A DNA stretch of 32,345 nucleotides from Roseiflexus sp. (GCA_025055265.1 JANWXL010000574.1:1-32345); one strand, 5' to 3'; shown: positions 1,486-23,618, counted from the first letter of the stretch. The notes: generated from the letters alone by a model not told the origin. Numbers and translations: made by a program.

Positions 1486-1516
1486 CCTAACCCCTAACCC
1501 TTAACCCCTAACCCCC
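1486..1516. repeat. Heptameric (TAACCCC)n array
   Basis: cctaacccctaacccttaacccctaaccccc; G-rich on the minus strand; overlaps the 3' end of the TPR gene. Confidence 0.9.
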
Positions 1517-2711
1517 GGCCCTCAATCTCAGCCAGCGCCTCGTCGAGCAGCGCCGCAGCGCCATAGTCACGGTTGGCGAGGAAGATTGAGCGAGCGCGGA
1601 TCAGACAGTCGCGGGCGCGGGCGATGTCGCCGAGATGGAACAGCGCGTTTCCCTGATTCGCCAGCATGCGCGCATACCAGAGCGGGTCGCACTCCTGATC
1701 GCGGCTCGCCAGCACCTCGTCGTACAACCGTACCGCTTCAAGCAGATGATCGGCAGGAGACGCAGCAGACGAAAGGCGCAGTGCGTTGGCGAGCGTGACC
1801 TGCGCATGGAGCCACTGCTCGTAGTGCGTTTCGCAGGTGTAGACGCGGAGCGACTCACGCAACGACTGGATTGCCCGTTCGTGCGAGACCTGATGACCGT
1901 TGCCTGCAGGCGCCAGCGCCAGGATGGTCAGCGCCAGCCGGTAATGCGCCAGCGCATAGAGGTCGGGTGAGCGCTCGATTGAGCAGCAGCGCAGCGCTTC
2001 CTGGAACCACTCATTCGCCTCGATCAGCAAGGTTCGCTGCCCGTTGGCGAGGTCCTGGCACAACATCCCCAGCCGCAATGTCAGATACGCGCGCAGGTCG
2101 ACGCGCCGACCCCTGCCGGTCAGTTTGACGGCATCGCGCAACGCCTGCAGCGCCGCTGCCGACTGGCTGATATTGGCGTGGAGCGTCGCCAGATGATCAA
2201 GGAGTTGCGCAGCAAACAACGGCGAAATGTGGCGGACTTCTTCGACCGCCCGCTGGAGCGCAGCAACGGCGACATCGTATTGCTGGCGGGCAAGCGCATG
2301 CGCAGCATGCGCCGGAAGAATGCACGCCGCGATTTCGCCGCTCACTCCATCCACCTCAGGCGGCGCGTCTCTCATGCCGCCCATATATGCTACGAGATCA
2401 AGCAGAGCAGCCAGGTCGCCGCGCAACTGCCAGCGCAGATGTGCATACACGTCCGGGTCGCTGCGCAGCACAAAGCGGTTGTAGTGCGCTTCCGGCGAGG
2501 AGTCGCGCGCCAGGGCATGCCAGGCGCCCTGACGATCGTCTGCCAGCGCCATGGTGTAAAAACGGAGTGCATCAGGCACACGGTCAGGAGTTTGCCCTGC
2601 AAGGAGAGCAGAGCATACCTCTTCGGCGCCAGCGACGGGTGGGATGACCAGATACCCTGCGGGTGCGGGAAAGATGCCGAGCGGTTGTGGACGAAGCGAT
2701 AGATGCGCCAT
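1494..2711 (-). CDS. TPR-like (tetratricopeptide) repeat protein, 405 aa
   Basis: Long ORF with Ala-rich helical repeats (LANQGNALFHLGDIARARDCLIRARSIF). The last residues (RGLGVKG*) are encoded by the heptamer array. Confidence 0.75.
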   Translation of the reverse strand: MAHLSLRPQPLGIFPAPAGYLVIPPVAGAEEVCSALLAGQTPDRVPDALRFYTMALADDRQGAWHALARDSSPEAHYNRFVLRSDPDVYAHLRWQLRGDLAALLDLVAYMGGMRDAPPEVDGVSGEIAACILPAHAAHALARQQYDVAVAALQRAVEEVRHISPLFAAQLLDHLATLHANISQSAAALQALRDAVKLTGRGRRVDLRAYLTLRLGMLCQDLANGQRTLLIEANEWFQEALRCCSIERSPDLYALAHYRLALTILALAPAGNGHQVSHERAIQSLRESLRVYTCETHYEQWLHAQVTLANALRLSSAASPADHLLEAVRLYDEVLASRDQECDPLWYARMLANQGNALFHLGDIARARDCLIRARSIFLANRDYGAAALLDEALAEIEGRGLGVKG

Positions 2712-2796
2712 AGCGCCTCCTTCGGGGAGACCCCGTATCAGTCGGCTCTATCGCTACGGGCGCCGTTGTCTTTCGCGATATGCCAGCGCCGGATGT

Positions 2797-3168
2797 TCAC
2801 GACGCTGTGGCTTCCGGCGCGTTTTCCTCATATTCCAGCGCCGTCAGTTCAATCTCCTGTCCTGTCACGATGCGTCCGCATGGCTCGTCGCACTGCGGGC
2901 AGCGAAAACGCTGCGGATTGGGCAACGTCACGACTGCGTCGCAGCCAGCGCAGTACGCCTGCAATGGCACATCTTCAATCTCCAGCCGCGCACCTTCCAG
3001 TCGTGTTCCGGCAGTGGCGACCTCGAATCCGAAAAGCAGCGCATCGCGCACCACTCCCGACAGGACCCCCAGACGAAGATGCACTGCTGTGACCCGCGTG
3101 ACGCCTGCCTTCGCCGCCGCTTCTTCGGCGATCTCGACCAGACTGTGAGCGATTGACAATTCATGCAT
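2797..3168 (-). CDS. hypA: Hydrogenase/urease nickel incorporation protein HypA
   Basis: MHELSIAHSLVEIAEEAAAKAGVTRVTAVHLRLGVLSGV...CAGCDAVV...CPQCDEPCG; canonical HypA N-terminus and zinc motif. Start set at ATG 3168 rather than the longer ORF start 3297. Confidence 0.9.
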   Translation of the reverse strand: MHELSIAHSLVEIAEEAAAKAGVTRVTAVHLRLGVLSGVVRDALLFGFEVATAGTRLEGARLEIEDVPLQAYCAGCDAVVTLPNPQRFRCPQCDEPCGRIVTGQEIELTALEYEENAPEATAS

Positions 3169-3438
3169 ACGCTGGCGGCAGTTGCAGGGCGCACGAGTCC
3201 TGGCAGACGCGCGTCCGTCAACGCTGACGTCGGCTGCTCTCACTCTCTGGCGCGGATCGGTGCGGCAGAACTCTTTGTGCAGAAGACGGAGACTCACTCG
3301 AAGCTATTATAGTGAGCCTCCGAAGTATACGCCGGTTAACGAATCGCAACTAAGAGAGAGTATATGACAACCAAATGACTGGATTGCGCTCCAACGCAGC
3401 GTCATCATTGACACAATCTGAACAAAAGATAGGCATTT

Positions 3439-4248
3439 TCAGTCGAAGAGGGACAGTTGCTCGCCATGCATGTCGCTCGACCAGTGGATCGGCGCGCGGC
3501 GCGGCAACGCGACCACGCTGACGTAATGAACGCCTGCGAGCGCCAGCACCCCGCGCACCACCTGCTCGGCAATCTGCGGCGTATTGGCTTCGCGTGAGAG
3601 GTGCGCCAGCCAGGCGCTGCGCCGTCGTCCATCAGCCCCCAGACGGGCAAGCAACCGTCCTGCGGCGACGTTGTCCAGGTGCCCGGTCGGACCATAGATG
3701 CGATGCTTCACGACCTCCACATACGGAGCGCGCCACAACTTCTCCTGATCGTGGTTTGCTTCGATGACCACCAGATCCGCTGGCGCCAAACCTTCCACAA
3801 CCACATCATTCCAGTGCCCCAGATCGGTCGCAATGCCAACACACCACCGTCCCGCGCTGATCGTGTACCCCACCGGTTCGGCGGCGTCGTGCGGCACCGG
3901 AAAACTGCGCACGCTGAAGCCAGCAATCGCGGCAGCGGCGCCAGTCGCCAGTTCCTGGACGGGGACGTCTGACAGATCCTGCTCGATGGCTGCCAGCGTC
4001 GCCTGGTTGGCGACAATCGGGATACCGTAGCGCCGCGCCAGCAGACTGGCGGACAGCGCGTGATCGCCATGCTCGTGGGTGAGCAGAATGGCGCTCAACT
4101 GCGCAGGATGGATGTCAACGCGCGCCAGCGCCGGTTCGAGCGTGCGCAATGGCAATCCACAATCGACCAGCAGCGCCGCGTCGCCGGATCGCACGAGCAG
4201 GACGTTGCCGCTGCTCCCGGAAGCGAGTGAGGTGACGTAGAGCGTCAT
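3439..4248 (-). CDS. MBL-fold metallo-hydrolase, YycJ/WalJ-like
   Basis: MTLYVTSLASGSSGNVLLVRSGDAALLVDCGL...ILLTHEHGDHALS; metallo-beta-lactamase THEHGDH motif and SLASGSSGN N-terminus typical of YycJ. Confidence 0.85.
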   Translation of the reverse strand: MTLYVTSLASGSSGNVLLVRSGDAALLVDCGLPLRTLEPALARVDIHPAQLSAILLTHEHGDHALSASLLARRYGIPIVANQATLAAIEQDLSDVPVQELATGAAAAIAGFSVRSFPVPHDAAEPVGYTISAGRWCVGIATDLGHWNDVVVEGLAPADLVVIEANHDQEKLWRAPYVEVVKHRIYGPTGHLDNVAAGRLLARLGADGRRRSAWLAHLSREANTPQIAEQVVRGVLALAGVHYVSVVALPRRAPIHWSSDMHGEQLSLFD

Positions 4249-4263
4249 AGGCGGGCGATGTCG

Positions 4264-5211
4264 CTATCGCGGGAACAGCACACTGATGCTTTCGCGGTTG
4301 TGAATGCGCCGGATAGCCTCGCCAAACAGCGGCGCTACCGACACCACTTCGACTTGCGGCGTCAATGTCACCGGTTGCGTCTCGACCGTGTCGGTCACAA
4401 ACAACCGTCGGATCGGGCTGTCCGCCAGTCGCTCCATCGCTCCCCTGGCAAAGACGCCGTGGGTCACAGCGGCGTATACCTCTTTTGCGCCGCGCACCAC
4501 TAATTGCCGGGCAACCTCGACGAGCGTGCCCGCCGAAATGGTGAAATCATCGACGATCAGCGCCGTCTTGCCCTCCACGTCGCCGATAATCTCGACGATA
4601 TGAGCATGCTCGTCGTGCGCGACGCGCTCCTTGTCGCCGACAGCCATAGAGACGCCGAGATACCGCGCATACTTCCGCGCTTTCTTGGCAAAACCGCTAT
4701 CGGGCGCAACCACAATGAGATTGTCCAGATTCATCTGCTTGATGCGGTCGCAGAGCACTGGCAACGCATACAGATCGTCCACGGGAATCTTGAAAAACCC
4801 CTGGATCTGCGGCGCGTGCAGATCCATGACGACGATGCGATCGGCGCCTGCCGCCTCAATGGCGTCGGCACAGACTCGTGCGCGGATCGAGACGCGCGGT
4901 TCGTCTTTTTTGTCTCCTTTGGCGTAACTGAAAAAGGGCACCACTGCCGTCACCGATGCAGCGCTCGCGCGTTTGAAAGCGTCGATCCAGAAGAGCAGCT
5001 CCATGAAATTGTCGTTCGCCGGAAACGCCGTTGACTGCACGATGTAGACGTGTCGTCCGCGCACATTCTCCAGAATGCGGACAAACAGGTTGCCTTCGGA
5101 AAAGCGCAAAACCTCGCATTGCCCCGGCGTCACATCAAGGTAGTCGCAGATGTTCTTCGTCAATTTCGGACTCCCTGAGCCGGGAAAGATCAACATATCA
5201 TCAGCGTTCAT
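4264..5211 (-). CDS. prs: Ribose-phosphate pyrophosphokinase
   Basis: MNADDMLIFPGSGSPKLTKNICDYL...VPFFSYAKGDKKDEPRVSIRARVCADAIEAAGADRIVVMDLHAPQIQGFF...ALIVDDFTISAGTL; PRPP synthase signatures. Start set at internal Met (5211). Confidence 0.9.
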   Translation of the reverse strand: MNADDMLIFPGSGSPKLTKNICDYLDVTPGQCEVLRFSEGNLFVRILENVRGRHVYIVQSTAFPANDNFMELLFWIDAFKRASAASVTAVVPFFSYAKGDKKDEPRVSIRARVCADAIEAAGADRIVVMDLHAPQIQGFFKIPVDDLYALPVLCDRIKQMNLDNLIVVAPDSGFAKKARKYARYLGVSMAVGDKERVAHDEHAHIVEIIGDVEGKTALIVDDFTISAGTLVEVARQLVVRGAKEVYAAVTHGVFARGAMERLADSPIRRLFVTDTVETQPVTLTPQVEVVSVAPLFGEAIRRIHNRESISVLFPR

Positions 5212-5337
5212 ACGCCTGCCCTCCGCCGTATCCGCCGTCCCCTCTGCGTCAGCAGGAACGATGTTGAGTATACCACGCACCGCCTCACAATGTGCGCTCT
5301 TCGCCGACCTTGACCATTTCAGTGTTCAGGGGCATCA

Positions 5338-5733
5338 TGAGGAGGCGAGAGGCACGAGGCATGAGGCACGAGGCGCGAGGCGGGGCACGAGGCACGAGGC
5401 ACGAGGCGAGGCACGAGGCACGAGGCACGAGGCGCGAGGCGCGAGGCGAGGCACGAGGCACGAGGCGCGAGGCACGAGGCGAGAAGCAAGGGGCACGAGG
5501 CACGAGGCGCGAGGCACGAGGCGAGAAGCAAGGGGCACGAGGCATGAGGCGAGAAGCTAGAGGCGGGAGGCGGGAGGGGCGAGGTGAAAGGCAAGAGGCA
5601 AGAGACGAGAGGGAACGAGGCAAGAGGGATGAGGGGCGCATTCGCTTATTCGTTTCCATTCGTTTATTCGCTTCCCTATTCGCTGACAGGCGAACGAGGC
5701 GCGAGGCGCGAGGCGAGAGGGTATGAGGAGTAA
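5338..5733. repeat. Degenerate heptanucleotide tandem array (GAGGCAC/GAGGCGC family)
   Basis: Dozens of gaggcac/gaggcgc/gaggcat units. The block gcgagaagcaaggggcacgaggca recurs with a 42-nt offset (6x7) and a variant 28 nt (4x7) further on. Interrupted by an ATTCG-rich stretch at 5636-5690. Confidence 0.9.
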
Positions 5734-5741
5734 GGCAAGGT

Positions 5742-5804
5742 GGTTCTTGGTTCTCGGTTCTCGTAACCCCTAACCCCTAACCCTTAACCCCCTAACTCTT
5801 ACCC
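5742..5804. repeat. Heptameric GGTTCTC / TAACCCC array
   Basis: ggttctt ggttctc ggttctc gtaaccc ctaaccc ctaaccc ttaaccc ... immediately upstream of the aaggagg RBS of the DegT gene. Confidence 0.9.
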
Positions 5805-5817
5805 AAGGAGGACGACG

Positions 5818-7080
5818 ATGTCTTCGAAGCTGGCAATCGACGGCGGCGAACGCGCGGTGAAGACGCCGCTGCCACCGATGTTCCCTGGCGGCATGCGCAT
5901 TGGCGTTGAAGAGGAGCGGGCAGTGCTGAATGTGTTGCAGAGCAAGCGCCTCTTCCGCTACTATGGTCCGGCGCCGGGTCCCTCGCAGACCGATCTGTTC
6001 GAGCAGGAATTTGCTGCTCACATGGGGGCGGCATACGCCCTGGCGGTCTCGTCAGGCACGGCAGCGCTCATGTGCGCCATGGCAAGTCTCGGAGTCGGAC
6101 CAGGTGACGAGGTGATCGTCCCGGCGTACACCTGGATTGCAACTGCCTCGGCGGCTGTGGCGCTTGGCGCTGTTCCGGTGATCGCTGAGATCGATGAGTC
6201 GCTGACGCTTGACACGGCAGATGTGGAACGCAAGATCACACCGCATACCCGCGCGATTGCGGCAGTGCATATGCGCGGTTCGCCGTGCCGGATGGATGCG
6301 CTGACCGAGATCGCGCACCGACGTGGCATAGCATTGATTGAAGATGTGGCGCAGGCGGCAGGCGCAAGTTTTCACGGGAAACGCCTTGGGACGTGGGGCG
6401 ACGCTGGCGCCTTCAGTCTGCAGTTCAATAAGATTATCACGTCGGGTGAAGGCGGTGTGGTGCTGACCAACAGCCATGCCTTGTACAAACGCGCCATCAT
6501 GTATCACGATGTCGTCGGCGGGTATCGCCATCACATTCCGCCCGACGAGATCCTGCCGGGGATCAACCTCCGCATGAGCGAACTCCAGGCTGCAGTGGCG
6601 CTGGCGCAACTCGGTAAACTGGAAGGGATACTGGCGGACATGCGACGCAACTATGCCGCCATCGTCGAACGCATTGCTGATCGTGTCACATCGTCCGGCG
6701 CCATGCTCCGTCGCCTCAACGATCCGGCAGGCGACGCAGGACTGGCGCTGGTGATGCTGCTCCCCTCCGCTGAACGCACACGCTGGACGGTCGATGCGTT
6801 GCGCGCCGAGGGAGTAGGCGCAATGGCGCTGTATCGACCTGACGTCGAGGATTATCACGTGTATTGCTACTGGGCGCCGATCATGAATCGAAAGACCTGG
6901 TCAGAACAGGGCGGGCCCTGGCGTTGGGCGGCGCGCACCATCGAGTATGCGCCCGATATGTGCCCGCGCTCGCTCGATCTGTTGAGTCGCGCCATCCATA
7001 TTGATGTCAGCCCCGATTTGAGCGAGGCGCAGATCGAAGAGGTCGCGGAGGCGGTGAATAAGGTATTGGAGGCGCTGTGA
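5818..7080 (+). CDS. DegT/DnrJ/EryC1/StrS family PLP-dependent aminotransferase, 420 aa
   Basis: GPGDEVIVPAYTWIATASAAVALGAVPVIAEID...GAFSLQFNKIITSGEGGVVLT (PLP-lysine context); RBS aaggagg. Confidence 0.9.
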   Translation: MSSKLAIDGGERAVKTPLPPMFPGGMRIGVEEERAVLNVLQSKRLFRYYGPAPGPSQTDLFEQEFAAHMGAAYALAVSSGTAALMCAMASLGVGPGDEVIVPAYTWIATASAAVALGAVPVIAEIDESLTLDTADVERKITPHTRAIAAVHMRGSPCRMDALTEIAHRRGIALIEDVAQAAGASFHGKRLGTWGDAGAFSLQFNKIITSGEGGVVLTNSHALYKRAIMYHDVVGGYRHHIPPDEILPGINLRMSELQAAVALAQLGKLEGILADMRRNYAAIVERIADRVTSSGAMLRRLNDPAGDAGLALVMLLPSAERTRWTVDALRAEGVGAMALYRPDVEDYHVYCYWAPIMNRKTWSEQGGPWRWAARTIEYAPDMCPRSLDLLSRAIHIDVSPDLSEAQIEEVAEAVNKVLEAL

Positions 7081-8426: not shown

Positions 8427-8443
8427 TTCATACGCGCAAAACA

Positions 8444-8470: not shown

Positions 8471-8477
8471 CGTGAAA

Positions 8478-9262: not shown

Positions 9263-11002
9263 TTGATGTCAGCGCCTTCTGTTACAATCAATCACCTTCA
9301 GCAACGGTTGCGCCCGATGGCGCTGCGTTTGCGTCTGCGCGATACGCTCTGGTTCGCCAGCAGCACCATGTGGATCGCTGCGCTGGCGTCACTGGCTATC
9401 CAGATAGCCGGTCGTCTGTTTCCGATCCCCGGGCTGCTCTGGATATCTCTGGCGCCATTAGCGCTGTGGATATTGATTGTCGGCGGCTATCTGACGGTGC
9501 GTCCATTACCGCCGATCCGCGTCGCGCAGCGGATCGACACGTTGCTCGATGCGCGTGAGCGTCTCGCTACGGCGCTTGAACTCAGTCAGCGCGCTGAGCG
9601 GACGCCGCTGGTCGAATTGCAGCAGCGCGACGCATATGCCTTTGCCACAACCCTCAAGCCGCGTCTGGTGCCGCTTGAGATCAATCGACGACCGCTGATC
9701 GTCGCGCTGGCGCTGGCGGCTGCCGTGGTTGCGCTGATCGTATTGCCTAACCCGCAGGACCAGGTTCTGGCAGAGCGGGCCGCCATTCGCGAGGCGACGC
9801 AGCAGGCAGTGGCGCAGATCGAGCAACTGCGTCAGGAGATCGCCCAGAACCAGAGTCTCAGCCCTGAGGAACGCGCAGCGCTGGATCGCGAACTGGCGGA
9901 ATTGCAACAGCGTCTCGAGCAGAATCCGGGCAATCGTGAAGAGGCGCTCGCCGATCTTTCGACAACTGAGGCGCGTCTGCAACAGCGCCTGACGCCTGAT
10001 GCAGATGCGCAACGCGCTGCGCTGGAACAACTTGCCCGCAATTTGCAGGCGATTGAGAATCAACCGCAGAGCAGTCGTCCCTCGCTGGAACAGGCTGAGG
10101 ATGCGCTGCGACAACTGGCGCAGCAGATCGAATCCATGACCGCCGAAGAACGCGCCCAACTGGCGGAACAATTGCGCCAGGAAGCGCAGCAATTGCAACA
10201 GAGCGCGCCGCAGACGGCGCAGGCGTTGCAGCAGGCGGCGGACGCCTTGCAGCAAAATAATGTTCAACAGGCGCAGCAAGCGCTTGAACAGGCGGCGCAG
10301 AGCGTCCAGCAGGCGCAGCAGCAGCAGGCGGCGCAGCAGGCGGCGCAACAGGCGATTGCCCAACTCCAGGAAGAACGCCAGTCCATTGCTCAGTCCGGGC
10401 AGCAACAGCAAGGACAGCAGCAACAGGGACAGCAGCAACCGCAAGGACAGCAGCAACAGGGGCAGCAGCAGCAGGGACAACCGCAAGGGCAGCAGCAGGG
10501 GCAGCAGCAGCAGGGACAACCGCAAGGGCAGCAGCAGGGGCAGCAGCAGCAGGGACAACAGCAGTCTGGTCAGCAACAGGGACAACTGCAAGGGCAGCAG
10601 CAGGGACAGCAGCAGCAGGGACAGCAACAACAGGGGCAGCAACCAGGGCAGCAAGCAGGGCAGGAAGGTCAGCCGGGTTCGCAGATGCAAGGGAACCAGC
10701 AAAGCCCGGCGACCGGAAACCAGGCGGGCACTGGCAGCAGCGACCTTGTCTATCAGCCCTTTACGCCCGATGGACAACCACGTGATGTCGAGCGCATTCA
10801 GGGGCAGGAAGGCGCAGGCGGGCAGACGCAGGTTCAGCAAGGGCAGTTGAACGCGCCGGGAGGCGTGAGTCCGCTTCAGACTCCCTATCAACAGGTGTTG
10901 CGCGAGTATCAGCGTGCAGCGGGAGAAGCGCTCGATCAGAGCGCTATTCCGCCGCACCTGAAAGATTATGTGCGCGACTATTTTTCACGGCTTGAGCCGT
11001 GA
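9263..11002 (+). CDS. Membrane-anchored coiled-coil protein with Gln/Gly-rich low-complexity region, 579 aa
   Basis: N-terminal hydrophobic segments (TMWIAALASLAIQIAGRLF, LWISLAPLALWILIVGGYL, LIVALALAAAVVALIVL), long Gln/Glu/Ala coiled-coil, GQQQQGQPQGQQQ tract, then a complex C-terminus PYQQVLREYQRAAGEALDQSAIPPHLKDYVRDYFSRLEP. Confidence 0.8.
   Translation: MMSAPSVTINHLQQRLRPMALRLRLRDTLWFASSTMWIAALASLAIQIAGRLFPIPGLLWISLAPLALWILIVGGYLTVRPLPPIRVAQRIDTLLDARERLATALELSQRAERTPLVELQQRDAYAFATTLKPRLVPLEINRRPLIVALALAAAVVALIVLPNPQDQVLAERAAIREATQQAVAQIEQLRQEIAQNQSLSPEERAALDRELAELQQRLEQNPGNREEALADLSTTEARLQQRLTPDADAQRAALEQLARNLQAIENQPQSSRPSLEQAEDALRQLAQQIESMTAEERAQLAEQLRQEAQQLQQSAPQTAQALQQAADALQQNNVQQAQQALEQAAQSVQQAQQQQAAQQAAQQAIAQLQEERQSIAQSGQQQQGQQQQGQQQPQGQQQQGQQQQGQPQGQQQGQQQQGQPQGQQQGQQQQGQQQSGQQQGQLQGQQQGQQQQGQQQQGQQPGQQAGQEGQPGSQMQGNQQSPATGNQAGTGSSDLVYQPFTPDGQPRDVERIQGQEGAGGQTQVQQGQLNAPGGVSPLQTPYQQVLREYQRAAGEALDQSAIPPHLKDYVRDYFSRLEP
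10475..10552 (+). repeat. 39-bp perfect tandem duplication within the Gln-rich coding region
   Basis: ggacaaccgcaagggcagcagcaggggcagcagcagcag x2. Confidence 0.9.
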
Positions 11003-15187: not shown

Positions 15188-17989
15188 ATGGGCATTTCGT
15201 TCGTCTATCCCGAAGCCCTCTGGCTGGTTTGCATTCTGCCGATCTTCTGGTTTCTCGCACTGTTCTCTCCAGCGCGTCATGGCGCATGGCGACGATGGCT
15301 CAGCCTCGTTCTCCGCACGCTCGTTGTGCTGGCGCTGATCGGCGCGCTCACGGGCGCACAATTGGTTCAGCCGCCTGACACAACCACGACGATTTTCCTC
15401 CTTGATGGTTCTGACTCGGTCGCTGCATCGCAACGCGCCCGCGCCGAGGCGTTCATTGCCCAGGCGCTGGCGACAATGCCGCCGGACGATCAGGCGGGCA
15501 TCATTGTATTTGGACGCGAGGCGCTCGTCGAGCGGCTTCCCTCGCCAGAACGCACCTTTGGCGCGCCTGCGGCGCGACCCTTCGGCGGCGCAACCAACAT
15601 TGCCGAAGCGCTGCAACTTGGGCTGGCGATGCTCCCCGCAGAGGGGCATCGACGACTGGTGCTTCTCTCCGACGGTGGTGAAAATCGGGGGAGTGCGCGT
15701 GAGATTGCGCAGCACATCGCTGTACAGGGCGTTCCTGTTGATGTTGTGCCGCTCAGCGGCAGCGCCGATGGGTTGGACGCGCAGGTCGTCGGTGTGTCTC
15801 TGCCAGCGGCGGCGCGCGAGGGACAGCGCCTGCCGCTGCGCGTCGATCTGGAAAGCACTACGCCTGTAGCAGGGCGATTGACGGTGACTGGACCTGATGG
15901 GCGCGTCGTTGCCACGCTTCCGGTCGAAATTGGCGCTGATCGGCAAACAATTTCGATTCTGCTCCCCGAAGCGCCGGTCGGTTTCAATCGCTACACAGTG
16001 CGTCTTGAGGTTCCAGATGATGCGCGCACCCAGAACAACGCCATCGAAACCTTCAGTTTCGTCAGGGGCAAACCGCAGGTGCTGCTGGTTGCACAGTCGA
16101 TCGACGATGTTGCCAGCCTGGAACGCGCGCTGCGCACCGCTCAGATCGATGTCACAGTCGCAGATCCGGCGTCTATGCCCGACACGTTCGGCGAGTTGAG
16201 CCTGTACGACGCAGTCGCGCTGGTGAATGTCCCCCGCGCCCTGTTTTCCGACCAGGCAACGCAACAGATTGCGGCGTATGTCCGCGACTTTGGCGGCGGT
16301 CTGCTCATGGTCGGCGGTCCGCAGTCGTTCGGTCCAGGAGGGTGGCGCGGCACGCCGGTCGAGGCGGCGTTGCCGGTGACGATGGATATTCCTGAGCGTC
16401 AGCGTCAGCCGCCGGTCAGCGTCGTAGTAGTCATCGATATTTCGGGGAGCATGTCCTCCATTGAGGATGGCGTGCCCAAACTCTCGCTGGCGCTCGAAGG
16501 CGCGCGCCGGATTGCAACGTTGCTGCGCGACGAAGACGAACTGACCGTGATCCCCTTCGACGATCGTCCTGGCGTGATAGTTGGTCCGCTGCCGGGATGG
16601 CAGCGCGACGCCGCGATCGAACAGTTGAACCAGGTGCGTCTTGGCGGCAGCGGCATCAATATTCACGATGCGCTTCAGGTAGCGGCGCGCTATGCCCGCG
16701 CCAGCAAGCACCCCGTGCGTCACATCATCACCATTACCGACGGCAACGATACAACTCAGCAGGAAGGCGCACTTGAGATTGTGCGCGATCTCCACGATGA
16801 AGGCGTGACCCTGACCTCAATCGCCATCGGGCAGGGTGAGCACGTGCCGTTCATCCGTGATATGGCCGCTGTTGGCGGCGGGCGCACCTTCCTGACAGAG
16901 CGCGCCGCTGATGTCCCCGATCTGTTGACTGGCGAGGCGCAGATGATCATTGCGCCATACATCGTCGAAGGCGCATTGACGCCACAGCGAGGAATGCCGC
17001 ATCCCATCCTCCGTGGAATTGACATTGCGCCCGACCTCCATGGCTATGTTCTGACCACGCCCCGCGCAACGGCGCAGGTGGCGCTTCTCGCTCCCAGTGG
17101 TGATACGCTGCTGGCAGCATGGCAGTACGGTCTGGGGCGTTCACTTGCCTGGACAAGCGATTTCAGCGGACGGTGGGCGAAAGAGTGGGTCGCGTGGGAC
17201 ACTTTTCCGCAGTTCAGCGCACAACTCCTCACCTGGCTTCTGCCGCAGCAAACCGGTGATACCCTGACTATTGCGACGCGCCCTGTCGGGGATGCTCTGG
17301 TCATTGAGGCCATCGCACGCTCACTCGATGGTGAACCACAGACCGGCTTGCGCGTGTCCTCCCGGCTAATTGCCGTTGACGGCGCCATTGTCGAAGCCGC
17401 GCTTCGAGAGGTCAGTCCGGGTCAGTATCGCACATCGCTCGACAGTTTACCGGCTGGCGCCTACCTGGTGCAGATCATCGCGCGAGACGGGCAGGGAACG
17501 CCGGTCGCGCTGGCGACTGGCGGCGCCGCAATGCCGTTTAGCGCCGAATATCGCAGCCAGGCAGGGGATCGCCGCGTACTTGAGGAGATAGCGCATATCA
17601 CCGGTGGACGGATCGATCCGCAGCCTCAGCAGGTCTTTGAGCGAGGACACACCGCGCGCGGCGTTGTGCGCGATGTCGGGTTATCGTTACTCTGGGTGGC
17701 GCTTGTGCTGTGGCCAATGGACATTGCGCTCAGGCGCATCTTTATTCCACATAGCCTGGTTGCCGCTACGCTGCAGCGCATTGGTCTGCGCACATCAACC
17801 GTGCGTCACGCGCCGCAAGAAACATCCGAAACAGCAGTTGCCTCCTCTCAGCCATCGTTCCCTGCCGCTGCGCCCCGCCAGCCGTCTGCTGTCCGCCCAC
17901 GCGCCACACGAGCCGCCGATGAACTGGAACGCCTTCGCGCTGCACAGGAAGCGGCGCGGCGACGCCTGCGCGGTGAGGGTGAGGGTTAG
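15188..17989 (+). CDS. Membrane protein with VWA - GATase1-like - VWA architecture, 933 aa
   Basis: TTIFLLDGSDSVAASQ (VWA-like 1); LYDAVALVNVPRALFSDQATQQIAAYVRDFGGGLLMVGGPQSFGPGGWRGTPVEAALPV (GATase1-like); VSVVVVIDISGSMSS (VWA 2); C-terminal TM; stop lies in the heptamer array. Confidence 0.9.
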   Translation: MGISFVYPEALWLVCILPIFWFLALFSPARHGAWRRWLSLVLRTLVVLALIGALTGAQLVQPPDTTTTIFLLDGSDSVAASQRARAEAFIAQALATMPPDDQAGIIVFGREALVERLPSPERTFGAPAARPFGGATNIAEALQLGLAMLPAEGHRRLVLLSDGGENRGSAREIAQHIAVQGVPVDVVPLSGSADGLDAQVVGVSLPAAAREGQRLPLRVDLESTTPVAGRLTVTGPDGRVVATLPVEIGADRQTISILLPEAPVGFNRYTVRLEVPDDARTQNNAIETFSFVRGKPQVLLVAQSIDDVASLERALRTAQIDVTVADPASMPDTFGELSLYDAVALVNVPRALFSDQATQQIAAYVRDFGGGLLMVGGPQSFGPGGWRGTPVEAALPVTMDIPERQRQPPVSVVVVIDISGSMSSIEDGVPKLSLALEGARRIATLLRDEDELTVIPFDDRPGVIVGPLPGWQRDAAIEQLNQVRLGGSGINIHDALQVAARYARASKHPVRHIITITDGNDTTQQEGALEIVRDLHDEGVTLTSIAIGQGEHVPFIRDMAAVGGGRTFLTERAADVPDLLTGEAQMIIAPYIVEGALTPQRGMPHPILRGIDIAPDLHGYVLTTPRATAQVALLAPSGDTLLAAWQYGLGRSLAWTSDFSGRWAKEWVAWDTFPQFSAQLLTWLLPQQTGDTLTIATRPVGDALVIEAIARSLDGEPQTGLRVSSRLIAVDGAIVEAALREVSPGQYRTSLDSLPAGAYLVQIIARDGQGTPVALATGGAAMPFSAEYRSQAGDRRVLEEIAHITGGRIDPQPQQVFERGHTARGVVRDVGLSLLWVALVLWPMDIALRRIFIPHSLVAATLQRIGLRTSTVRHAPQETSETAVASSQPSFPAAAPRQPSAVRPRATRAADELERLRAAQEAARRRLRGEGEG

Positions 17990-18033
17990 GTGTTAGGGGT
18001 TAGGGGTTAGGGGTTAGAGGTTAGGGGTTAGAG
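17974..18033. repeat. Heptameric GGGGTTA array, G-rich on the plus (sense) strand
   Basis: gagggtgagggttaggtgttaggggttaggggttaggggttagaggttaggggttag; overlaps the last codons and stop of the 933-aa gene. Confidence 0.92.
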
Positions 18034-18073
18034 AGCCTTGCGCCGTCACACTTCCCGCTTGCGCGCCTTCGCG

Positions 18074-18251
18074 CCTGCAACCTTCCGCTGTTACACTTCC
18101 ACTTTCGCGCCTTCGCACGTGCGACCTTCCCCTGGTGCGCCTGCCGCTTTCACACCTTTGCACCTGCAACCTTCCGCTGTTACACTTTCACTTTCGCGCC
18201 TTCGCACGTGCGACCTTCCCCTGGTGTGCCTGCCGCTTACGCGCCTTCGAT
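18074..18251. repeat. Two-copy tandem repeat, 89-bp period
   Basis: cctgcaaccttccgctgttacactt(c/t)cactttcgcgccttcgcacgtgcgaccttcccctggtg(c/t)gcctgccgctt at 18074 and 18163. Confidence 0.9.
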
Positions 18252-18268
18252 GGTCTTTGAGAAATTAA

Positions 18269-18356
18269 TCCGCTATAGCCCCGTCCAGCCCGCGAAGGCG
18301 GGCTTCGCAACCGTAGCCCGCGACTTCAGGCGCCGGGCGGATAGGCGGATAGCGGA
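18269..18356 (+). repeat. MITE/REP-like element copy A with 8-bp terminal inverted repeats
   Basis: tccgctat ... atagcgga ends; internal hairpin agcccgc-gaag-gcgggct; related sequence in opposite orientation at 23161-23244. Confidence 0.7.
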
Positions 18357-18414
18357 ATATATATTCAAAGTCCATTGCACCTTCAGCCTCTTGCCATGCG
18401 CCTCTTACCTGGTT

Positions 18415-18450
18415 AAAAGCGACTGGCGCCGGCGGGGGTGCCGACGCCAG
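18415..18450 (-). terminator. Rho-independent-like terminator for the candidate ncRNA
   Basis: Minus strand CTGGCGTCGGC-ACCCCC-GCCGGCGCCAG then TCGCTTTT. Confidence 0.5.
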
Positions 18451-18569
18451 CATCACGTGGCTTGGGGGGCGGCCACCGTGGGTCTGGGCTCAGTCGGGCG
18501 GCGTCTGTACGCTACGGCAAACGCGGCTCTCCGCCAACCGCCTTTGCCCAACCCGACAGTCCGTCGACC
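18415..18569 (-). ncRNA. Candidate structured non-coding RNA of unassigned family
   Basis: Minus strand: -10-like TATACT (18581-18576), then stems GGCAAA/TTTGCC with GCGG/CCGC, GTCGGG/CCCGAC and GTGGC/GCCAC, ending in an 11-bp GC-rich hairpin followed by TCGCTTTT. Confidence 0.35.
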
Positions 18570-18645
18570 GCTATAAGTATACCACCGTCATGCCGCAGTG
18601 CGGCATTGCGAAATCACAACTCTAGGTTAAGTATTATGACGCGCC

Positions 18646-18717
18646 GCGTAACGGAACGTTCACAGTATGCCAGCGCTGCGCGCAGCCGCATAACGCACTG
18701 CGTAACGGAACGTTCAC
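18646..18717. promoter_or_regulatory. Paired direct repeats gcgtaacggaacgttcac (54-bp spacing), candidate operator
   Basis: Identical 18-mers at 18646-18663 and 18700-18717, each containing the palindrome GAACGTTC, upstream of the flavodoxin-like gene. Confidence 0.5.
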
Positions 18718-18808
18718 TGCTGGTTGCCAGACTGCGCCAACACGGTAACAGGGCTGTGGTATGCTCAAGGCGAGCACAACGACGTGCGAATACAACGAGG
18801 TGCGAGCC

Positions 18809-19285
18809 ATGAGAGTTTTGATTGTCTATGCATCCTGGTTTGGACACAATCGCGAAGTCGCCAGAATGATCGCTGAGCGCCTGTCACCGTATGCTTCGCA
18901 CGTTATCTGCGCGCCGGTAACCTCTGTAACTGCCAGCGATACCATAGGGTGTGACCTGCTGGTGCTGGGAAGCTTCACCCATGCCCACCACGCCAGCTGG
19001 CGCCTGCGGCATCTGGTCGAAACCATTCCAGAGCGCCGCCTCAAGCGGATGGCAATTGCAGTCTTCGGCACCCAAACCGTCGACGAACGACCGAGCAGCA
19101 TCGATGATCTGGTGAGCACACTGGCTGAACGAGGCGCGCGGTTGGCTGTCCCCCCGCTCAGGGTCATCCTTCCGGCGCCGGATTTCGTACCATGGTCAAG
19201 GATCACGCCTGAAGAACGCGCCAAGATCGACGCATTCGCACAGGCGCTGGCGCATCAACTGGAACCTGAAACAATGAGTCGATAA
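18809..19285 (+). CDS. Flavodoxin-like domain protein
   Basis: MRVLIVYASWFGHNREVARMIAERLSPYASHVICAPV...CDLLVLGSFTHAHHASWRLRHLVE; flavodoxin-like FMN-loop context. Confidence 0.75.
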   Translation: MRVLIVYASWFGHNREVARMIAERLSPYASHVICAPVTSVTASDTIGCDLLVLGSFTHAHHASWRLRHLVETIPERRLKRMAIAVFGTQTVDERPSSIDDLVSTLAERGARLAVPPLRVILPAPDFVPWSRITPEERAKIDAFAQALAHQLEPETMSR

Positions 19286-19474
19286 GGAACATTTGCTGGG
19301 TCAACACGGTAGAGGCAGCGCGGGCTCTGCCGTTCGCTCATACGAGCAATGGGCGCCAGGTAAGCGCTAATCGCGGATACCTGCACGATGCCCCCCAGCG
19401 CGCGCCAGTCGTTCTCTTACATCTTCACGGCGCGCCAGAGCGCAACGATGCGCTTCCCGGCACAAGATACAACA

Positions 19475-20509
19475 ATGCTGAGATCAACTGACATTACACG
19501 TGTGTTGTCCCATTACGATCTGGGACCGATCGAAGGGATCACTGCCACAGGTCATGGGTTTGTCAATGAAACGGCCGTTGTCGTGACGCGATGCGGACGG
19601 TTCGTGGTACGGCGTAACCACTATCGCTTCTCGCTTGCGTCGGTACGTTACCGTCATCACCTGATCGAACACCTTTGCCAGCGATCGTTTCCCACGGCTC
19701 GTCTCATTCCGAACAAAACCGGTTCAACGATGACCATCATCGATGGACGGATCTACGAAGTGCAGGAGTATGTGCACGGAACCGACTTCGATCCGGGTCG
19801 TCCAGGCCAGATCGTGGACGTGGGCGCGACACTCGCCTGGTACCATCAGGCAGTCGTGGATCTCCCGCCGCCGGGCGACGCGACAGTGCCCCGGTATGCG
19901 CCAGCACGCATCACCTCTCTGACCGAGACATTGTACGAACGCGACGTCATGGGGGAACTGCACGCCGACCTCGCCTGGTACGACGGGCGGGCGTCGGCGT
20001 TGCGCGCCGCTCTGCCGGATCAGGCCTATGAAGCGCTGCCACGGGTGCTGATCCACGGCGATATGCATCCGGATAATGTGCGATTCGTCGGTGACCGGGT
20101 TGTGGCATTGCTCGACTTCGATCAGGTTGAGCGAGATGCGCGCATTGTCGATCTGGCGGATGCGCTCGTCGGGTTTGCAACCCGGGTCATGCCGTCGGAA
20201 ACGACCTCGTGGGGCGTTTTTCAGGGTCCGCTGGACATTCCGCAGGCAGTCAACCTGGTGTGCAGTTATGGGCGCATCGCGCCGCTGCTGCCAGGTGAAG
20301 TCGCTGCGCTGCCTGTGCTGATTGAAGTGCTCTGGCTGCGCGGTGAACTCGGGCGGGTCATTTCAACGCCTGAGGGAGCGCCCGATTACCACGCAGCCGT
20401 GCTGGCGCAGGGCAGGCGCCTCTCGGAGTGGATGCAGCAGCACGCACGGATGCTTATCGATCACTGGAACGAAGCGACGATTGGCCGCGTAGGCGCGCTC
20501 GCGGCGTAA
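19475..20509 (+). CDS. Aminoglycoside phosphotransferase / ThrB-SrkA-like kinase family protein
   Basis: YEALPRVLIHGDMHPDNVRFVGDRVVALLDFDQVERDARIVDLADAL; APH catalytic HGDxxxxN and DFD motifs. ORF extends to 19388 upstream; start uncertain. Confidence 0.85.
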   Translation: MLRSTDITRVLSHYDLGPIEGITATGHGFVNETAVVVTRCGRFVVRRNHYRFSLASVRYRHHLIEHLCQRSFPTARLIPNKTGSTMTIIDGRIYEVQEYVHGTDFDPGRPGQIVDVGATLAWYHQAVVDLPPPGDATVPRYAPARITSLTETLYERDVMGELHADLAWYDGRASALRAALPDQAYEALPRVLIHGDMHPDNVRFVGDRVVALLDFDQVERDARIVDLADALVGFATRVMPSETTSWGVFQGPLDIPQAVNLVCSYGRIAPLLPGEVAALPVLIEVLWLRGELGRVISTPEGAPDYHAAVLAQGRRLSEWMQQHARMLIDHWNEATIGRVGALAA

Positions 20510-20511
20510 GG

Positions 20512-20695
20512 ACGAGAGGCGAGAGGCAAGAGGGCTGAAGGTTGAAGGTGGGAAGGTTGCAGGTGGTCGCTGAACGTTGAATGTTGCACGTTGAACGTGG
20601 GAAGATTTCCTAACCCTTAACCCCTAACCCTTGAACCGGTTCTCGGTTCTCGTAACCCCTGCTCTCCACTCCCCACTCCCTACTCCCTAACCCTT
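20512..20695. repeat. Composite heptameric array (GAGAGGC, GAAGGTT, GTTGAAC, TAACCCC, GGTTCTC, CTCCCTA units)
   Basis: e.g. gaacgtt gaatgtt gcacgtt gaacgtg; ctctcca ctcccca ctcccta ctcccta; cctaacccttaacccctaaccctt. Fills the intergenic gap between convergent genes. Confidence 0.85.
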
Positions 20696-21106
20696 CGCTT
20701 CCAACTCCACCATCCGCCGAAACAGATCACTTTCGGTAATGACCCCGATCACGCGCCCCTCTTCGACGACCGGAACGCCGCCGATGCGATGGCGCAGCAA
20801 TAGCTGGGCGACGGCGATCACAGGATCATCGGGACCCACAGTGATGACATTGCGAGTCATAAAATCGCGTAACGGGAGATCGGCGACGCGATGGTAGAGG
20901 TTGTACTGCCGCATATCGTGAACGTGCGAGTCGGAGATCCGGTTGATGTCGCCTTCGGTGACGATCCCCACCAGGCGACCGTCGCTATCAATAACAGGAA
21001 GGCGACGCACGCGATGTCTGTGCATCAACCGTCGCGCTTCGGGGAGCGTTGTTGAGTCAGAAACGCAGATTGGCGGCTGGCTCATCCAGTCACGTACTGT
21101 ATCCAT
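20687..21106 (-). CDS. Dual CBS-domain protein
   Basis: MDTVRDWMSQPPICVSDSTTLPEARRLMHRHRVRRLPVIDSDGRLVGIVTEGDINR...DPVIAVAQLLLRHRIGGVPVVEEGRVIGVITESDLFRR; stop codon lies in the heptamer array. Confidence 0.93.
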   Translation of the reverse strand: MDTVRDWMSQPPICVSDSTTLPEARRLMHRHRVRRLPVIDSDGRLVGIVTEGDINRISDSHVHDMRQYNLYHRVADLPLRDFMTRNVITVGPDDPVIAVAQLLLRHRIGGVPVVEEGRVIGVITESDLFRRMVELEAKG

Positions 21107-21160
21107 AGACTCAGCGTTTCCGCCCTGGTTTGCAGTTTGTTCTACCCACAAACCAGCGTA

Positions 21161-21469
21161 CTAACCCCAATGGATGCCGCTCTCGGAAGCATTGACCAGT
21201 TTGCCGTTGCGGTCGAAGAGCAACCGTACCGAATGCCGCACCGGACAGTCGATGATCGGGCAACGACCCGCAGCAGCATCCTCAGGAGGCACGTCGTATG
21301 GGCATCCATTTGCGCGGCACTGCTCAATTGAAACGGCGTATCTCGGTGATCCGGGTGGGCCGTCGAGCGTGTGGATGCGCAGCGGCGCATCTTTCAACAC
21401 CGGTTGATGCTCGCTCAGATATGCGCGCGCGACTTTGATGAGCGGATGCTGACGTTTTCTGCGTGGCAT
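21161..21469 (-). CDS. Small cysteine-containing hypothetical protein, 102 aa
   Basis: MPRRKRQHPLIKVARAYLSEHQPVLKDAPLRIHTLDGPPGSPRYAVSIEQCRANGCPYDVPPEDAAAGRCPIIDCPVRHSVRLLFDRNGKLVN; codirectional and 55 bp upstream of the CBS gene. Confidence 0.7.
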   Translation of the reverse strand: MPRRKRQHPLIKVARAYLSEHQPVLKDAPLRIHTLDGPPGSPRYAVSIEQCRANGCPYDVPPEDAAAGRCPIIDCPVRHSVRLLFDRNGKLVNASESGIHWG

Positions 21470-21539
21470 AGACTCGCCCTCACAGATACAAAAACCATTA
21501 CAGGATGGCGATAGTGTACTTTCTTTGTGGCGATCTCCA

Positions 21540-21608
21540 CGAGAAATCTTCTCGACTAACCGTTATTGTCTCGCAACATTCGATTTGCGAGAGACGAGAA
21601 GGTATGAT
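21540..21608 (+). promoter_or_regulatory. Intergenic palindromes and TATGAT -10 candidate upstream of the histidine kinase
   Basis: cgagaa-atc-ttctcg (21540-21554); tctcgcaa-cattcgat-ttgcgaga (21569-21592); TATGAT at 21603-21608. Confidence 0.45.
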
Positions 21609-21651
21609 ACGATTGTTCATGGTACTGTAGTAGTGTGCGCAAATCAGGTCA

Positions 21652-23118
21652 ATGAAACAGCGTTCCGCCTCCGCAAAGCGACTCAAGCAGCCGATCAACG
21701 GTCAAACGGATGACAGTGCACATCTGCGAGCTGAACTGACGGCGGCATATGCGCGTATTGCCGAACTCGAGGCGCAGATGGCTGCGTCCGCTCAGCGCGT
21801 GAACCTGGCAAATGAGCGCCTGAACGCTATCCTGACAATCAGCGCGGCTTTCCTTATCACGCACGAGATAGATACCATCCTGCAGTTGGTCGTGCGTGAA
21901 GCAGTGCAACTGTTCCCCGGCACAAGCGGTGCGTTGCTGTTTCTGGCGGATCAGGCAGGGATGCGCCTGCGACTGGCGGCAAGCAGCAGCGGTAAGACCA
22001 GCGGGCTCTCCCTGCGCGCCGGGCAGGGTCTGGCAGGGCGTGCGTTCCTTGCTCCGCGCGCAATGCTGGTTGCCGGTCCGGAGCTCGAGGCAGCGCTGAG
22101 TGAATTGAGCGAAGCGCAGCTTGCTCAAAAGAAGAAAGTCCTGGGTTTCTGGCCCCCCGACTGTGCGCTGCTGGCGCCATTGCGCATTGAGGATGCCCGG
22201 CTCGGCGCCCTGGCACTGTACGGCAATCAGAATTCTCATCTGATCCATCCGCGTGATATCCCATTCGTGCAGGCGCTGGCGGATCTGACTGCTGTTGCGA
22301 TTGCGGAACATCGTCAGCGCGCGCGTGCGGCAGCATTGCAGCGAGACCTGGATCAGACGCAGTCGCTGCATGCCGAGGCGCAGGCGCGGCTTAACGCGGC
22401 GCAGGCGCAACTGTTGCAGAGCGCCAAGCTGGCTGCCGTCGGCGAACTGGCAGCCTCGGTGGCGCACGAGATCAACAATCCGCTTTATGCGGCGCGCAAC
22501 AGTCTCTACCTGGTGGAACAGGATATTCCGCCTGATACTCCGCAGCGCCATTTCCTCACGATCGCCCAGAACGAACTCGGACGCATCGCCCGCATCATTA
22601 CGCGCATGCGCGATTTCTATCGCCCGGCGCGCGATGAACTGGAGCCGACAGAGATCAACGATCTGCTGGCGGAAACGATCGAACTGGTGCAGACCCATCT
22701 GCGGCACGGGCAGGTGACAGTAACTGTCAACTTCTGTCCGCACCTCCCTCGCCTGATTGCTCATCCCGATCAGTTGCGCCAGGTTTTCCTCAACCTGATG
22801 CTCAACGCGTGCGATGCGATGCCAAATGGCGGGCAGTTGCACATTGCAACGGAACTCTCCTGCACTCATGATGCCGGTTCACAATACATCGTGATCTCGG
22901 TTCGCGATACCGGCGTGGGGATCAGCCCGGAGCATATGCCGCACCTCTTCGAGCCGTTTTACACCACAAAACCGCAGGGCACGGGGCTGGGGCTGGCGAT
23001 CAGCGCCCATATTGTGACGCAGCACGGCGGTCATATTCAGGTCGAAAGCACGCCTGGCGCCGGGAGCACATTCACGGTTCTGCTACCTGTGGATCGTATG
23101 GGAGAAGAGGGGGGGTAG
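21652..23118 (+). CDS. GAF domain sensor histidine kinase, 488 aa
   Basis: GAF-like N-terminus; HisKA SAKLAAVGELAASVAHEINNPLYAARNSLYLVEQDI; HATPase QVFLNLMLNACDAMPNGG...DTGVGISPEHMPHLFEPFYTTKPQGTGLGLAIS. Confidence 0.95.
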   Translation: MKQRSASAKRLKQPINGQTDDSAHLRAELTAAYARIAELEAQMAASAQRVNLANERLNAILTISAAFLITHEIDTILQLVVREAVQLFPGTSGALLFLADQAGMRLRLAASSSGKTSGLSLRAGQGLAGRAFLAPRAMLVAGPELEAALSELSEAQLAQKKKVLGFWPPDCALLAPLRIEDARLGALALYGNQNSHLIHPRDIPFVQALADLTAVAIAEHRQRARAAALQRDLDQTQSLHAEAQARLNAAQAQLLQSAKLAAVGELAASVAHEINNPLYAARNSLYLVEQDIPPDTPQRHFLTIAQNELGRIARIITRMRDFYRPARDELEPTEINDLLAETIELVQTHLRHGQVTVTVNFCPHLPRLIAHPDQLRQVFLNLMLNACDAMPNGGQLHIATELSCTHDAGSQYIVISVRDTGVGISPEHMPHLFEPFYTTKPQGTGLGLAISAHIVTQHGGHIQVESTPGAGSTFTVLLPVDRMGEEGG

Positions 23119-23152
23119 GAGAACCAAGAACCGAGAACCAGGAAATGAGAAC
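23119..23152. repeat. Heptameric GAACCRA array
   Basis: gaaccaa gaaccga gaaccag gaaatga gaacgaa; reverse complement of the GGTTCTC family; begins right after the histidine kinase stop. Confidence 0.7.
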
Positions 23153-23160
23153 GAAGTCCC

Positions 23161-23244
23161 GCGCCAGCTATCCGCTCACCCGCCTGGCGCATAAAGTCGC
23201 GGGCTACGGAATGCGTAGCCCGCCTGCGCGGGCTATACCGGATC
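23161..23244 (-). repeat. MITE/REP-like element copy B (inverted relative to copy A)
   Basis: Reverse complement contains tagcccgcgcaggcgggctacgcattccgtagcccgcgactttatgcgccaggcgggtgagcggatagc, aligning with copy A at 18269-18356. Confidence 0.7.
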
Positions 23245-23259
23245 TTAATTACGTTCATA

Positions 23260-23341
23260 GGGCGCACTGCCGTGCGCCCCTGCCTGACACCCTTTCACGT
23301 GCAACGTGTGTCACGTGCGCGGGCGCGCCGCTAGCGCGCCC
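23260..23341. repeat. Two REP-like GC hairpins
   Basis: gggcgcac-tgcc-gtgcgccc (23260-23279) and gggcgcgc-cgcta-gcgcgccc (23321-23341). Confidence 0.7.
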
Positions 23342-23618
23342 CTACCTGCAACCTTCGCACCTTCAAACCTATTGCCCCTCGCCTCGGTTACCCCTTCTCA
23401 ACCAAAAATTGCAAATTTGCAACCAGCGTCACAAAGAATCTCTGGTATCGTACCATTTCGATGTTGTGTGATTACAACGCGGAGTTGTCGCCTCACTTTC
23501 CAGGACTCTGTTGCTTTTTGTTATAGTGGCAACGGAGCAACCAGCCAGAACGCGCAGACCATGCGTGACAGGCAGGTTTCCCTTTGACCGTCAGTCGAAC
23601 TATGTCTGGACAGGTATC

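What the first reader, a model, noticed from the sequence alone, without database searches (positions are those of the whole stretch)
1486..23380. Intergenic tandem repeats share a 7-nt period but not a sequence
Arrays at 1486-1516, 5338-5733, 5742-5804, 17974-18033, 20512-20695, 23119-23152 and about 23346-23366 can mostly be parsed as consecutive heptamers, while the monomers differ: TAACCCC, GAGGCAC, GGTTCTC, GAAGGTT, GTTGAAC, CTCCCTA, CACCTTC, GAACCGA. Adjacent families join in phase (GGTTCTC-GTAACCC-CTAACCC; CTCCCTA-ACCCTTC). A conserved period with divergent sequence suggests a length-templated generating mechanism, such as 7-nt slippage or a polymerase step size, rather than a mobile sequence family. 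Cyanobacterial STRR heptamers are an established analogue of 7-nt intergenic repeats, but coexistence of many monomer families in one ~32-kb window is striking.
Basis: partly seen in the sequence, partly recalled or inferred. Interest (0 to 1): 0.85.

Follow-up and report, generated by a model that had tools for sequence, protein, structure and literature searches.

The report
Oriented seven-letter repeats between Roseiflexus genes
About a fifth of the gaps between genes in this Roseiflexus-like bacterium carry stretches of several different seven-letter DNA repeats, always laid out in one polarity between the two neighbouring genes; seven-letter repeats are known in other bacteria, but this strict layout of several repeat families looks new and its cause is not known.

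Summary
The window is a Roseiflexus-genus MAG contig. Period 7 dominates noncoding tandem repeats: 170 fuzzy arrays, against 1 at period 5, 4 at 6, 47 at 8 and 16 at 9. In unselected contigs, exact runs number 25 against 0, 1, 2 and 2, with none in shuffled sequence. The last listed array (23346-23366) is only a degenerate tract.

The period is constant, but the monomers are not arbitrary: a few families recur at hundreds of places and across species, with one junction shared between loci. So there is dispersal or copying as well as 7-nt growth.

New here is a grammar. The purine/G-rich strand tends to point outward from each flanking gene. Within one intergenic region the order is always purine arrays, then pyrimidine arrays: 0 reversals in 133 neighbouring pairs, about 24 expected. 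Family order is mostly fixed too. At one orthologous site, species carry different families in the same place and orientation.

Heptamer families, border-hugging and outward G-strand polarity are published for Xanthomonas, and so is the polymerase-footprint idea. Verdict: new variant of a known kind; the cause of the polarity is open.

The parts
1060..1098 (+). Site A, left arm: class I purine-strand tract (GAGAGGC then GTTGAAGG) at the left side of the intergenic region
   Evidence: sequence; TRF 1071-1085 period 7; counted as GAGGC>
1486..1516 (-). Site A, right arm: TAACCCC array (GGGGTTA on the minus strand); overlaps the 3' end of the TPR gene 1494-2711(-) and supplies its stop codon
   Evidence: the same place holds TAACCCC in G011-G013 but a GGTTCTC-type array in G009 and G010
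5342..5627 (+). Site B, left arm: long GAGGCNN array with 33/40-bp higher-order repeats
   Evidence: (TRF scores 236-252)
5639..5675 (.). Site B: 8-bp/18-bp ATTCGYTT stretch inside the array block (not period 7)
5685..5728 (+). Site B: second GAGGC array
5742..5763 (-). Site B, right arm: GGTTCTC array (GAGAACC on the minus strand)
5764..5803 (-). Site B, right arm: TAACCCC array, ending just before AAGGAGG and the ATG of the DegT-family gene at 5818
17972..18033 (+). Site C, left arm: GGGGTTA array; supplies the TAG stop of the VWA gene 15188-17989
   Evidence: gene end differs in G009 and G013
18036..18249 (-). Site C: pyrimidine-rich 44/89-bp tandem repeat made of CCTTCGCACCTGCAACCTTCC-like words
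   Evidence: score 320; assignment to the right arm is by eye
20512..20534 (+). Site D, left arm: GAGAGGC array, 3 bp after the stop of gene 19388-20509
20536..20600 (+). Site D, left arm: GAAGGTT then GAACGTT arrays
20609..20637 (-). Site D, right arm: TAACCCC/TAACCCT array
20637..20652 (-). Site D, right arm: GGTTCTC units
20657..20698 (-). Site D, right arm: CTCCCTA array; supplies the stop of the CBS-domain gene 20687-21151(-)
23119..23152 (+). Site E, left arm: GAGAACC array starting at the base after the stop of the histidine-kinase gene 21652-23118
23346..23394 (-). Site E, right arm: degenerate pyrimidine tract with CAACCTTC / GCCTC words (weak; not called by TRF)
   Evidence: weak

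Best explanation
These are dispersed intergenic heptamer tandem repeats, a simple-sequence-repeat/STRR-type phenomenon, organised as composite tracts. Shown here: arrays cluster at gene borders with the G/purine-rich strand running outward from the gene, and a region with both polarities always has a purine arm on its left and a pyrimidine arm on its right. The typical order is GAGGC>, GAAGGTT> | TAACCCC, GGTTCTC, or the reverse complement. Inferred: arms lengthen, shorten and homogenise by 7-nt-register slippage and local duplication. New copies spread between loci by recombination, conversion or an unidentified copying step, so that one family can replace another while position and polarity stay. 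Inferred and least certain: the polarity reflects a common origin of both arms in one event per intergenic region, kept because only this polarity is tolerated next to stop and start codons. No encoded machine for it was found.
For: Period 7 is genome-wide and noncoding: 80.7 arrays per 100 kb noncoding against 3.1 coding; 170 arrays against 1, 4, 47 and 16 for periods 5, 6, 8 and 9. Families recur across loci and species: TAACCCCTAACCC has 326 hits in this genome, 91/119/58 in G011/G012/G013, 0 in G009 and 1 in G010; GAACYGAGAAC has 697 in G009 and 232 here; GAGGC dimers 470 here against 45 in G009. Reversed-pattern controls are near 0. Polarity: adjacent arrays RR 26, RY 19, YY 17, YR 0 using period alone; with family words RR 50, RY 31, YY 52, YR 0, shuffle mean 24 and minimum 15. 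Arms co-occur 30 times against 11.9 expected after length stratification. Class I and class II face each other at 25 of 31 seams. Arrays lie within 10 bp of a gene border in 31% of cases against 8% expected. Site A keeps an array of one polarity in six genomes while the family differs. The junction GGTTCTC-N-TAACCCC is in register in 9/9, 5/7 and 7/8 cases in G000, G011 and G013.
Against: No strain pair close enough was available to see 7-nt indels directly, so slippage is not shown here. No enzyme or mobile-element ends were found. The order of GAGAACC relative to TAACCCC varies and 6 of 31 seams join arms of one class, so the 'composite element' is not rigid. Family-specific gene-direction preferences (GAAGGTT purine strand on the coding strand 31:4; GAGAACC 5:16) suggest gene-coupled selection rather than one insertion event. 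Gene calls are my own hexamer-based calls, and the family word list was made after looking at the data.
Confidence: 0.55

Rival explanations
1. Pure 7-nt slippage: a polymerase- or repair-set step size expands any local seed by 7 nt, with no copying between loci.
For: Constant period with several monomers; unrelated heptamers are also the commonest noncoding short period in other Chloroflexota (15 at period 7; 2, 3, 7, 2 at 5, 6, 8, 9; but 13 at period 10).
Against: The same few families at hundreds of places, the same junction at many loci, and fixed polarity order do not follow from independent local seeds.
Confidence: 0.12
2. Non-autonomous mobile element: each tract is one polar insertion (class I arm, centre, class II arm), entering in either orientation, like a MITE or REP doublet.
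For: Heterotypic arms at 25/31 seams, mostly fixed order, co-occurrence of arms, same orientation kept at orthologous sites.
Against: No constant ends, no target duplication seen, arm order varies, no excess fold stability, no empty site resolved; polarity also holds in other Chloroflexota with other monomers.
Confidence: 0.15
3. End-extension at breaks: intergenic double-strand breaks are healed by slipping 3'-end synthesis of G-rich heptamers on both ends, then joined, giving the convergent, fused-telomere-like polarity.
For: Polarity is outward on both sides whatever the gene direction; 6 of 10 array regions are rearrangement breakpoints against G009, versus 3 of 19 array-free regions over 60 bp (p=0.03).
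Against: Both ends should then carry the same families, but 25/31 seams are heterotypic. Repeated events should make pyrimidine-then-purine order, seen 0 times. The one reverse transcriptase shared by most array-bearing genomes sits next to a cas1-like gene, so it looks CRISPR-associated. Breakpoints may simply tolerate arrays.
Confidence: 0.08
4. Selected regulatory DNA/RNA: inward-running transcripts would carry C-rich heptamers (Rho loading, insulation), or arrays bind a regulator of translation or stability.
For: Hugging of starts and stops, polarity by gene side, family-specific sense; a regulator role was proposed for TAACTGA repeats (PMC4679880).
Against: Family and array length turn over at the same gene; site B in G012 has almost no array; no link to gene function was tested; RNA folds are not special.
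Confidence: 0.1

Closest known systems
GGGAATC / GGGGA(T/C)T heptamer repeats of Xanthomonas and Nostoc (PMC4692102)
   Same: Intergenic heptamer arrays in >180 places in Xanthomonas, close to gene ends, G-rich strand within 50 bp after a stop on the sense strand or before a start on the antisense strand; 70-75 convergent pairs. Same outward-G geometry.
   Different: One family studied per genome there; here several families in ordered arms, mostly different families facing each other, and family replacement at an orthologous site. Of the main families only TAACCCC has runs of G for G-quadruplexes.
TAACTGA direct repeats of Beggiatoaceae, Cyanobacteria, Bacteroidetes (PMC4679880)
   Same: Intergenic heptamers near starts; indels mostly in 7-nt steps between two Cyanothece strains; mixed heptamer assemblages in some genomes.
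   Different: TAACTGA is not among the common families here; in BOGUAY mostly one orientation upstream of starts, here both gene ends.
Cyanobacterial STRR heptanucleotides
   Same: Several 7-nt tandem families dispersed in intergenic DNA.
   Different: STRR sequences and their layout were not compared directly; knowledge of STRRs here is from memory and from citations in PMC4692102.
Interstitial telomere-like repeats
   Same: TTAGGGG units, convergent G-strands as at a telomere fusion.
   Different: Several non-telomeric heptamers behave the same way; the G009 relative is a single 5.8-Mb bacterial contig.

Membership tests
Dispersed bacterial heptamer SSR/STRR-type repeats | tandem units of 7 bp, in excess over other periods | tested here: met
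Dispersed bacterial heptamer SSR/STRR-type repeats | intergenic and dispersed in many copies | tested here: met
   80.7 against 3.1 per 100 kb; 22 of 112 intergenic regions of >=40 bp in unselected contigs carry family tracts
Dispersed bacterial heptamer SSR/STRR-type repeats | length change in 7-nt steps between strains | not testable with these tools
   no near-identical strain held; nearest relatives are about 85-89% identical in DNA
Xanthomonas-type GGGAATC repeats | G-rich strand outward from the nearest ORF, convergent pairs | tested here: met
Xanthomonas-type GGGAATC repeats | GGGAATC sequence | tested here: not met
   not among the common Roseiflexus classes listed; one Caldilineaceae locus, L019, does carry it
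TAACTGA repeats | TAACTGA sequence | tested here: not met
   not among the common classes listed
REP/REPIN or MITE | palindromic or inverted-repeat fold | tested here: not met
   two-armed regions are not more stable than shuffles (10 regions, median z -0.3; array-free controls -1.65)
REP/REPIN or MITE | defined ends and target-site duplication | tested here: inconclusive
   five orthologous sites read; no clean empty/filled pair
Reverse-transcriptase-made repeats | dedicated RT with a template RNA in array-bearing genomes | tested here: not met
   the shared RT lies beside a cas1-like gene and was not found in array-bearing G013; cas1 was recognised by eye

The most novel reading that the evidence does not exclude
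A single undescribed process lays down heptamer arrays as polar two-armed units between genes and imposes both the 7-nt register and the outward G-strand polarity, largely regardless of monomer sequence, in several bacterial phyla (Roseiflexus, other Chloroflexota, Xanthomonas).
Probability: 0.2. Interest if true: 0.85.

Novelty: new variant of a known kind. Interest (0 to 1): 0.55.

Why it matters
The excess of heptamers in bacteria was reported in 2007 (cited in PMC4692102) and still has no demonstrated mechanism. Here is a genus in which several families coexist, replace each other at an orthologous site and still obey a polarity order without an exception in 133 pairs. That separates the constant (7-nt register, outward G strand) from the variable (sequence), and makes the cause testable with close strains, RNA-seq and reporter constructs. 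It also warns that gene ends here are partly written by repeats, because the stop codon lies in the array at several genes.

Tried and rejected
Reverse transcriptase as repeat writer: the RT shared by most array-bearing genomes is followed by a cas1-like gene, and none was found in G013. Hairpin/terminator function: no excess RNA stability of two-armed regions. General purine loading of 3' ends: the outward purine excess over all intergenic DNA is slight and near 0.5 in G009, and divergent regions obey the array rule too. Known RNA family: only the tRNA in the window matches Rfam. G-quadruplex as general cause: of the main families only TAACCCC has runs of 3-4 G. A seam motif GGGAAG before CTAACC: 4 cases, with about 0.3 expected by a rough count, too few to build on. 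Replication-strand effect: in G009 the GAGGC purine strand is + at 9 of 11 loci before 2.9 Mb and - at 13 of 16 after (p=0.002; dnaA at 370 bp), but GAACYGAGAAC is balanced in total, so this stays unexplained. A cyanobacterial plasmid as control was not available.

Full report
What the window is. It is contig C369 (32,345 bp) of a 4.03-Mb MAG in 604 contigs. Its closest named relatives are Chloroflexota/Roseiflexus MAGs (DegT-family protein 94% and 85% identical). A same-genus genome, G009, is one contig of 5,801,598 bp with dnaA at position 370; from memory this matches Roseiflexus sp. RS-1. Window genes are ordinary: TPR protein, HypA, PRPP synthetase, DegT aminotransferase, MoxR/DUF58/VWA cluster, CBS protein, histidine kinase, acetyl-CoA synthetase-like protein, chorismate synthase.

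Checking the observation. TRF finds period-7 arrays at all the listed places except 23346-23366. Exact lag-7 runs of 11 or more matches number 8 in the window and 25 in 287 kb of unselected contigs (every tenth contig from C200 to C590). Lags 5, 6, 8 and 9 give 0, 1, 2 and 2 there, and shuffled sequence gives 0 at lag 7. G009 gives 21 against 0 at each of those lags. With a fuzzy detector and my own gene calls, noncoding DNA of six genomes holds 170 period-7 arrays against 1, 4, 47 and 16 at periods 5, 6, 8 and 9; part of the 8s look like variants of the 7s, judged by eye. Density is 80.7 per 100 kb noncoding and 3.1 coding. Two same-family genomes, G001 and G014, have none in 100-120 kb.

Families. 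The monomers fall into few classes that recur at many loci: AACCCCT, AACCGAG/AACTGAG/AACCAAG, AACCTTC/AACGTTC, and the AGAGGCG group. Counts differ strongly by species: TAACCCCTAACCC has 326 hits in this genome, 91, 119 and 58 in G011-G013, none in G009 and one in G010. GAACYGAGAAC has 232, 697, 299, 98, 571 and 535 in G000, G009, G010, G011, G012 and G013. GAGGCRMGAGGC has 470, 45, 18, 269, 55 and 453 in the same order. Reversed-pattern controls gave 0-3 per strand.

Grammar. Arrays hug gene borders: 31% lie within 10 bp, 8% expected by random placement. Purine content of arrays falls from the left to the right of intergenic regions (rho -0.45, p 5e-8), in convergent, divergent and codirectional regions alike. 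Using period alone, neighbouring arrays are purine-purine 26, purine-pyrimidine 19, pyrimidine-pyrimidine 17 and pyrimidine-purine 0. With a list of family words the counts are 50, 31, 52 and 0; shuffling labels inside regions gives a mean of 24 reversals and never fewer than 15 in 2000 trials. Fourteen of the 31 mixed regions come from contigs not chosen for repeats or from other genomes, and all obey. Far from borders single arrays show no side preference, yet the order is kept. Family order is mostly GAGGC>, GAAGGTT> | TAACCCC, GGTTCTC or its reverse complement; class I faces class II at 25 of 31 seams, and same-strand neighbours of different class are 3 of 41. Both arms occur together 30 times, 11.9 expected after length stratification.

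Gene side. Within 25 bp of a 3' end the nearest tract is outward in 73 of 79 cases; at 5' ends in 22 of 32, nearly all class II. In codirectional regions the purine strand of GAAGGTT is the coding strand 31:4, of GAGAACC 5:16, of TAACCCC evenly split. Arrays supply stop codons at 1494, 17989 and 20687, and gene C-termini differ between species at sites A, C and E.

Orthologous sites. At site A, G000, G011, G012 and G013 have TAACCCC next to the TPR gene; G009 and G010 have a GGTTCTC/GGTTCCT array in the same place and polarity. At site B, G012 (the same contig as L001) has only about 18 bp where the window has about 460 bp. At site D, G011 and G012 keep the same arm classes in the same orientation with different array lengths and inserts. 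Against G009, 6 of 10 array-bearing regions are synteny breakpoints, 3 of 19 array-free regions over 60 bp, and 4 of 45 of all array-free. This is suggestive and confounded by operon structure.

Junctions. GGTTCTC followed by TAACCCC is in one register at 9 of 9 loci in this genome, 5 of 7 in G011 and 7 of 8 in G013; in this genome 7 of the 9 also have the same linking base. Either one ancestral junction was copied to many loci, or units change family within a fixed 7-nt lattice. GAGGC->GAAGGTT junctions show no phase.

Beyond the genus. In about 650 kb of other Chloroflexota with unrelated monomers, 15 noncoding period-7 arrays were found and 13 have the G-richer strand outward from the nearest gene. 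One is GGGAATC, the Xanthomonas heptamer. Published work on Xanthomonas reports the same geometry for that single family. So polarity is not peculiar to these sequences.

Mechanism. Shown: period, families, polarity order, family order, border anchoring, family difference at a fixed site. Inferred: growth by 7-nt-register slippage and local duplication; copying between loci. Not determined: what sets the polarity. A unit origin of both arms is favoured by the strict order and co-occurrence; gene-coupled selection is favoured by the family-specific sense preferences. Reverse transcriptase, hairpin and general purine-loading explanations were tested and not supported.

Limits. Gene calls are home-made, word lists were chosen after inspection, part of the G000 sample was chosen for TAACCCC, and MAG contigs may break at arrays. 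The period-only test and the unselected contigs guard against the word list and the selected sample, not against errors in the gene calls.

Noticed in passing
window 18249-18376: A dispersed repeat of about 127 bp (AGCCCGCGAAGGCGGGCTTCGCAACCGTAGCCCGCGACTTCAGGCGCC...), dozens of copies in this genome and in G011-G013, next to the TTAGGGG array; REP/MITE-like. A cousin may lie at 23190-23240.
   Followed up: partly
window 5639-5675; L189, L215, L127: An 8-bp family (ATTCGCTT / GCGAATAA) is mixed with the heptamer arrays, often beside GAGGC tracts.
   Followed up: no
G009 whole contig: GAGGC purine strand is mostly + before about 2.9 Mb and mostly - after it (9:2 against 3:13 loci), with dnaA at 370 bp: a possible replichore bias of one family.
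   Followed up: partly
L206 1000-2334 (-): Reverse transcriptase followed by a cas1-like gene, so probably CRISPR-associated; the RT gene ends in GGAAGGTTGAAGGTTGA, so its stop codon lies in a heptamer dimer.
   Followed up: partly
window 5818-7080: The DegT-family gene is missing at this place in G009, G011 and G013; the breakpoint is at or near the array at site B.
   Followed up: partly
L264 3900-4500 (G009), L252 4700-5100: At sites D and E, G009 has other tandem repeats (GGGGCGCAGCGGCGCAGTC and GCGGGCAGGATGCCCGCGTACCC) instead of heptamers.
   Followed up: no
window 10399-10663: Low-complexity CAGCAG-rich coding repeat in ORF 9263-11002 (no Pfam match).
   Followed up: no
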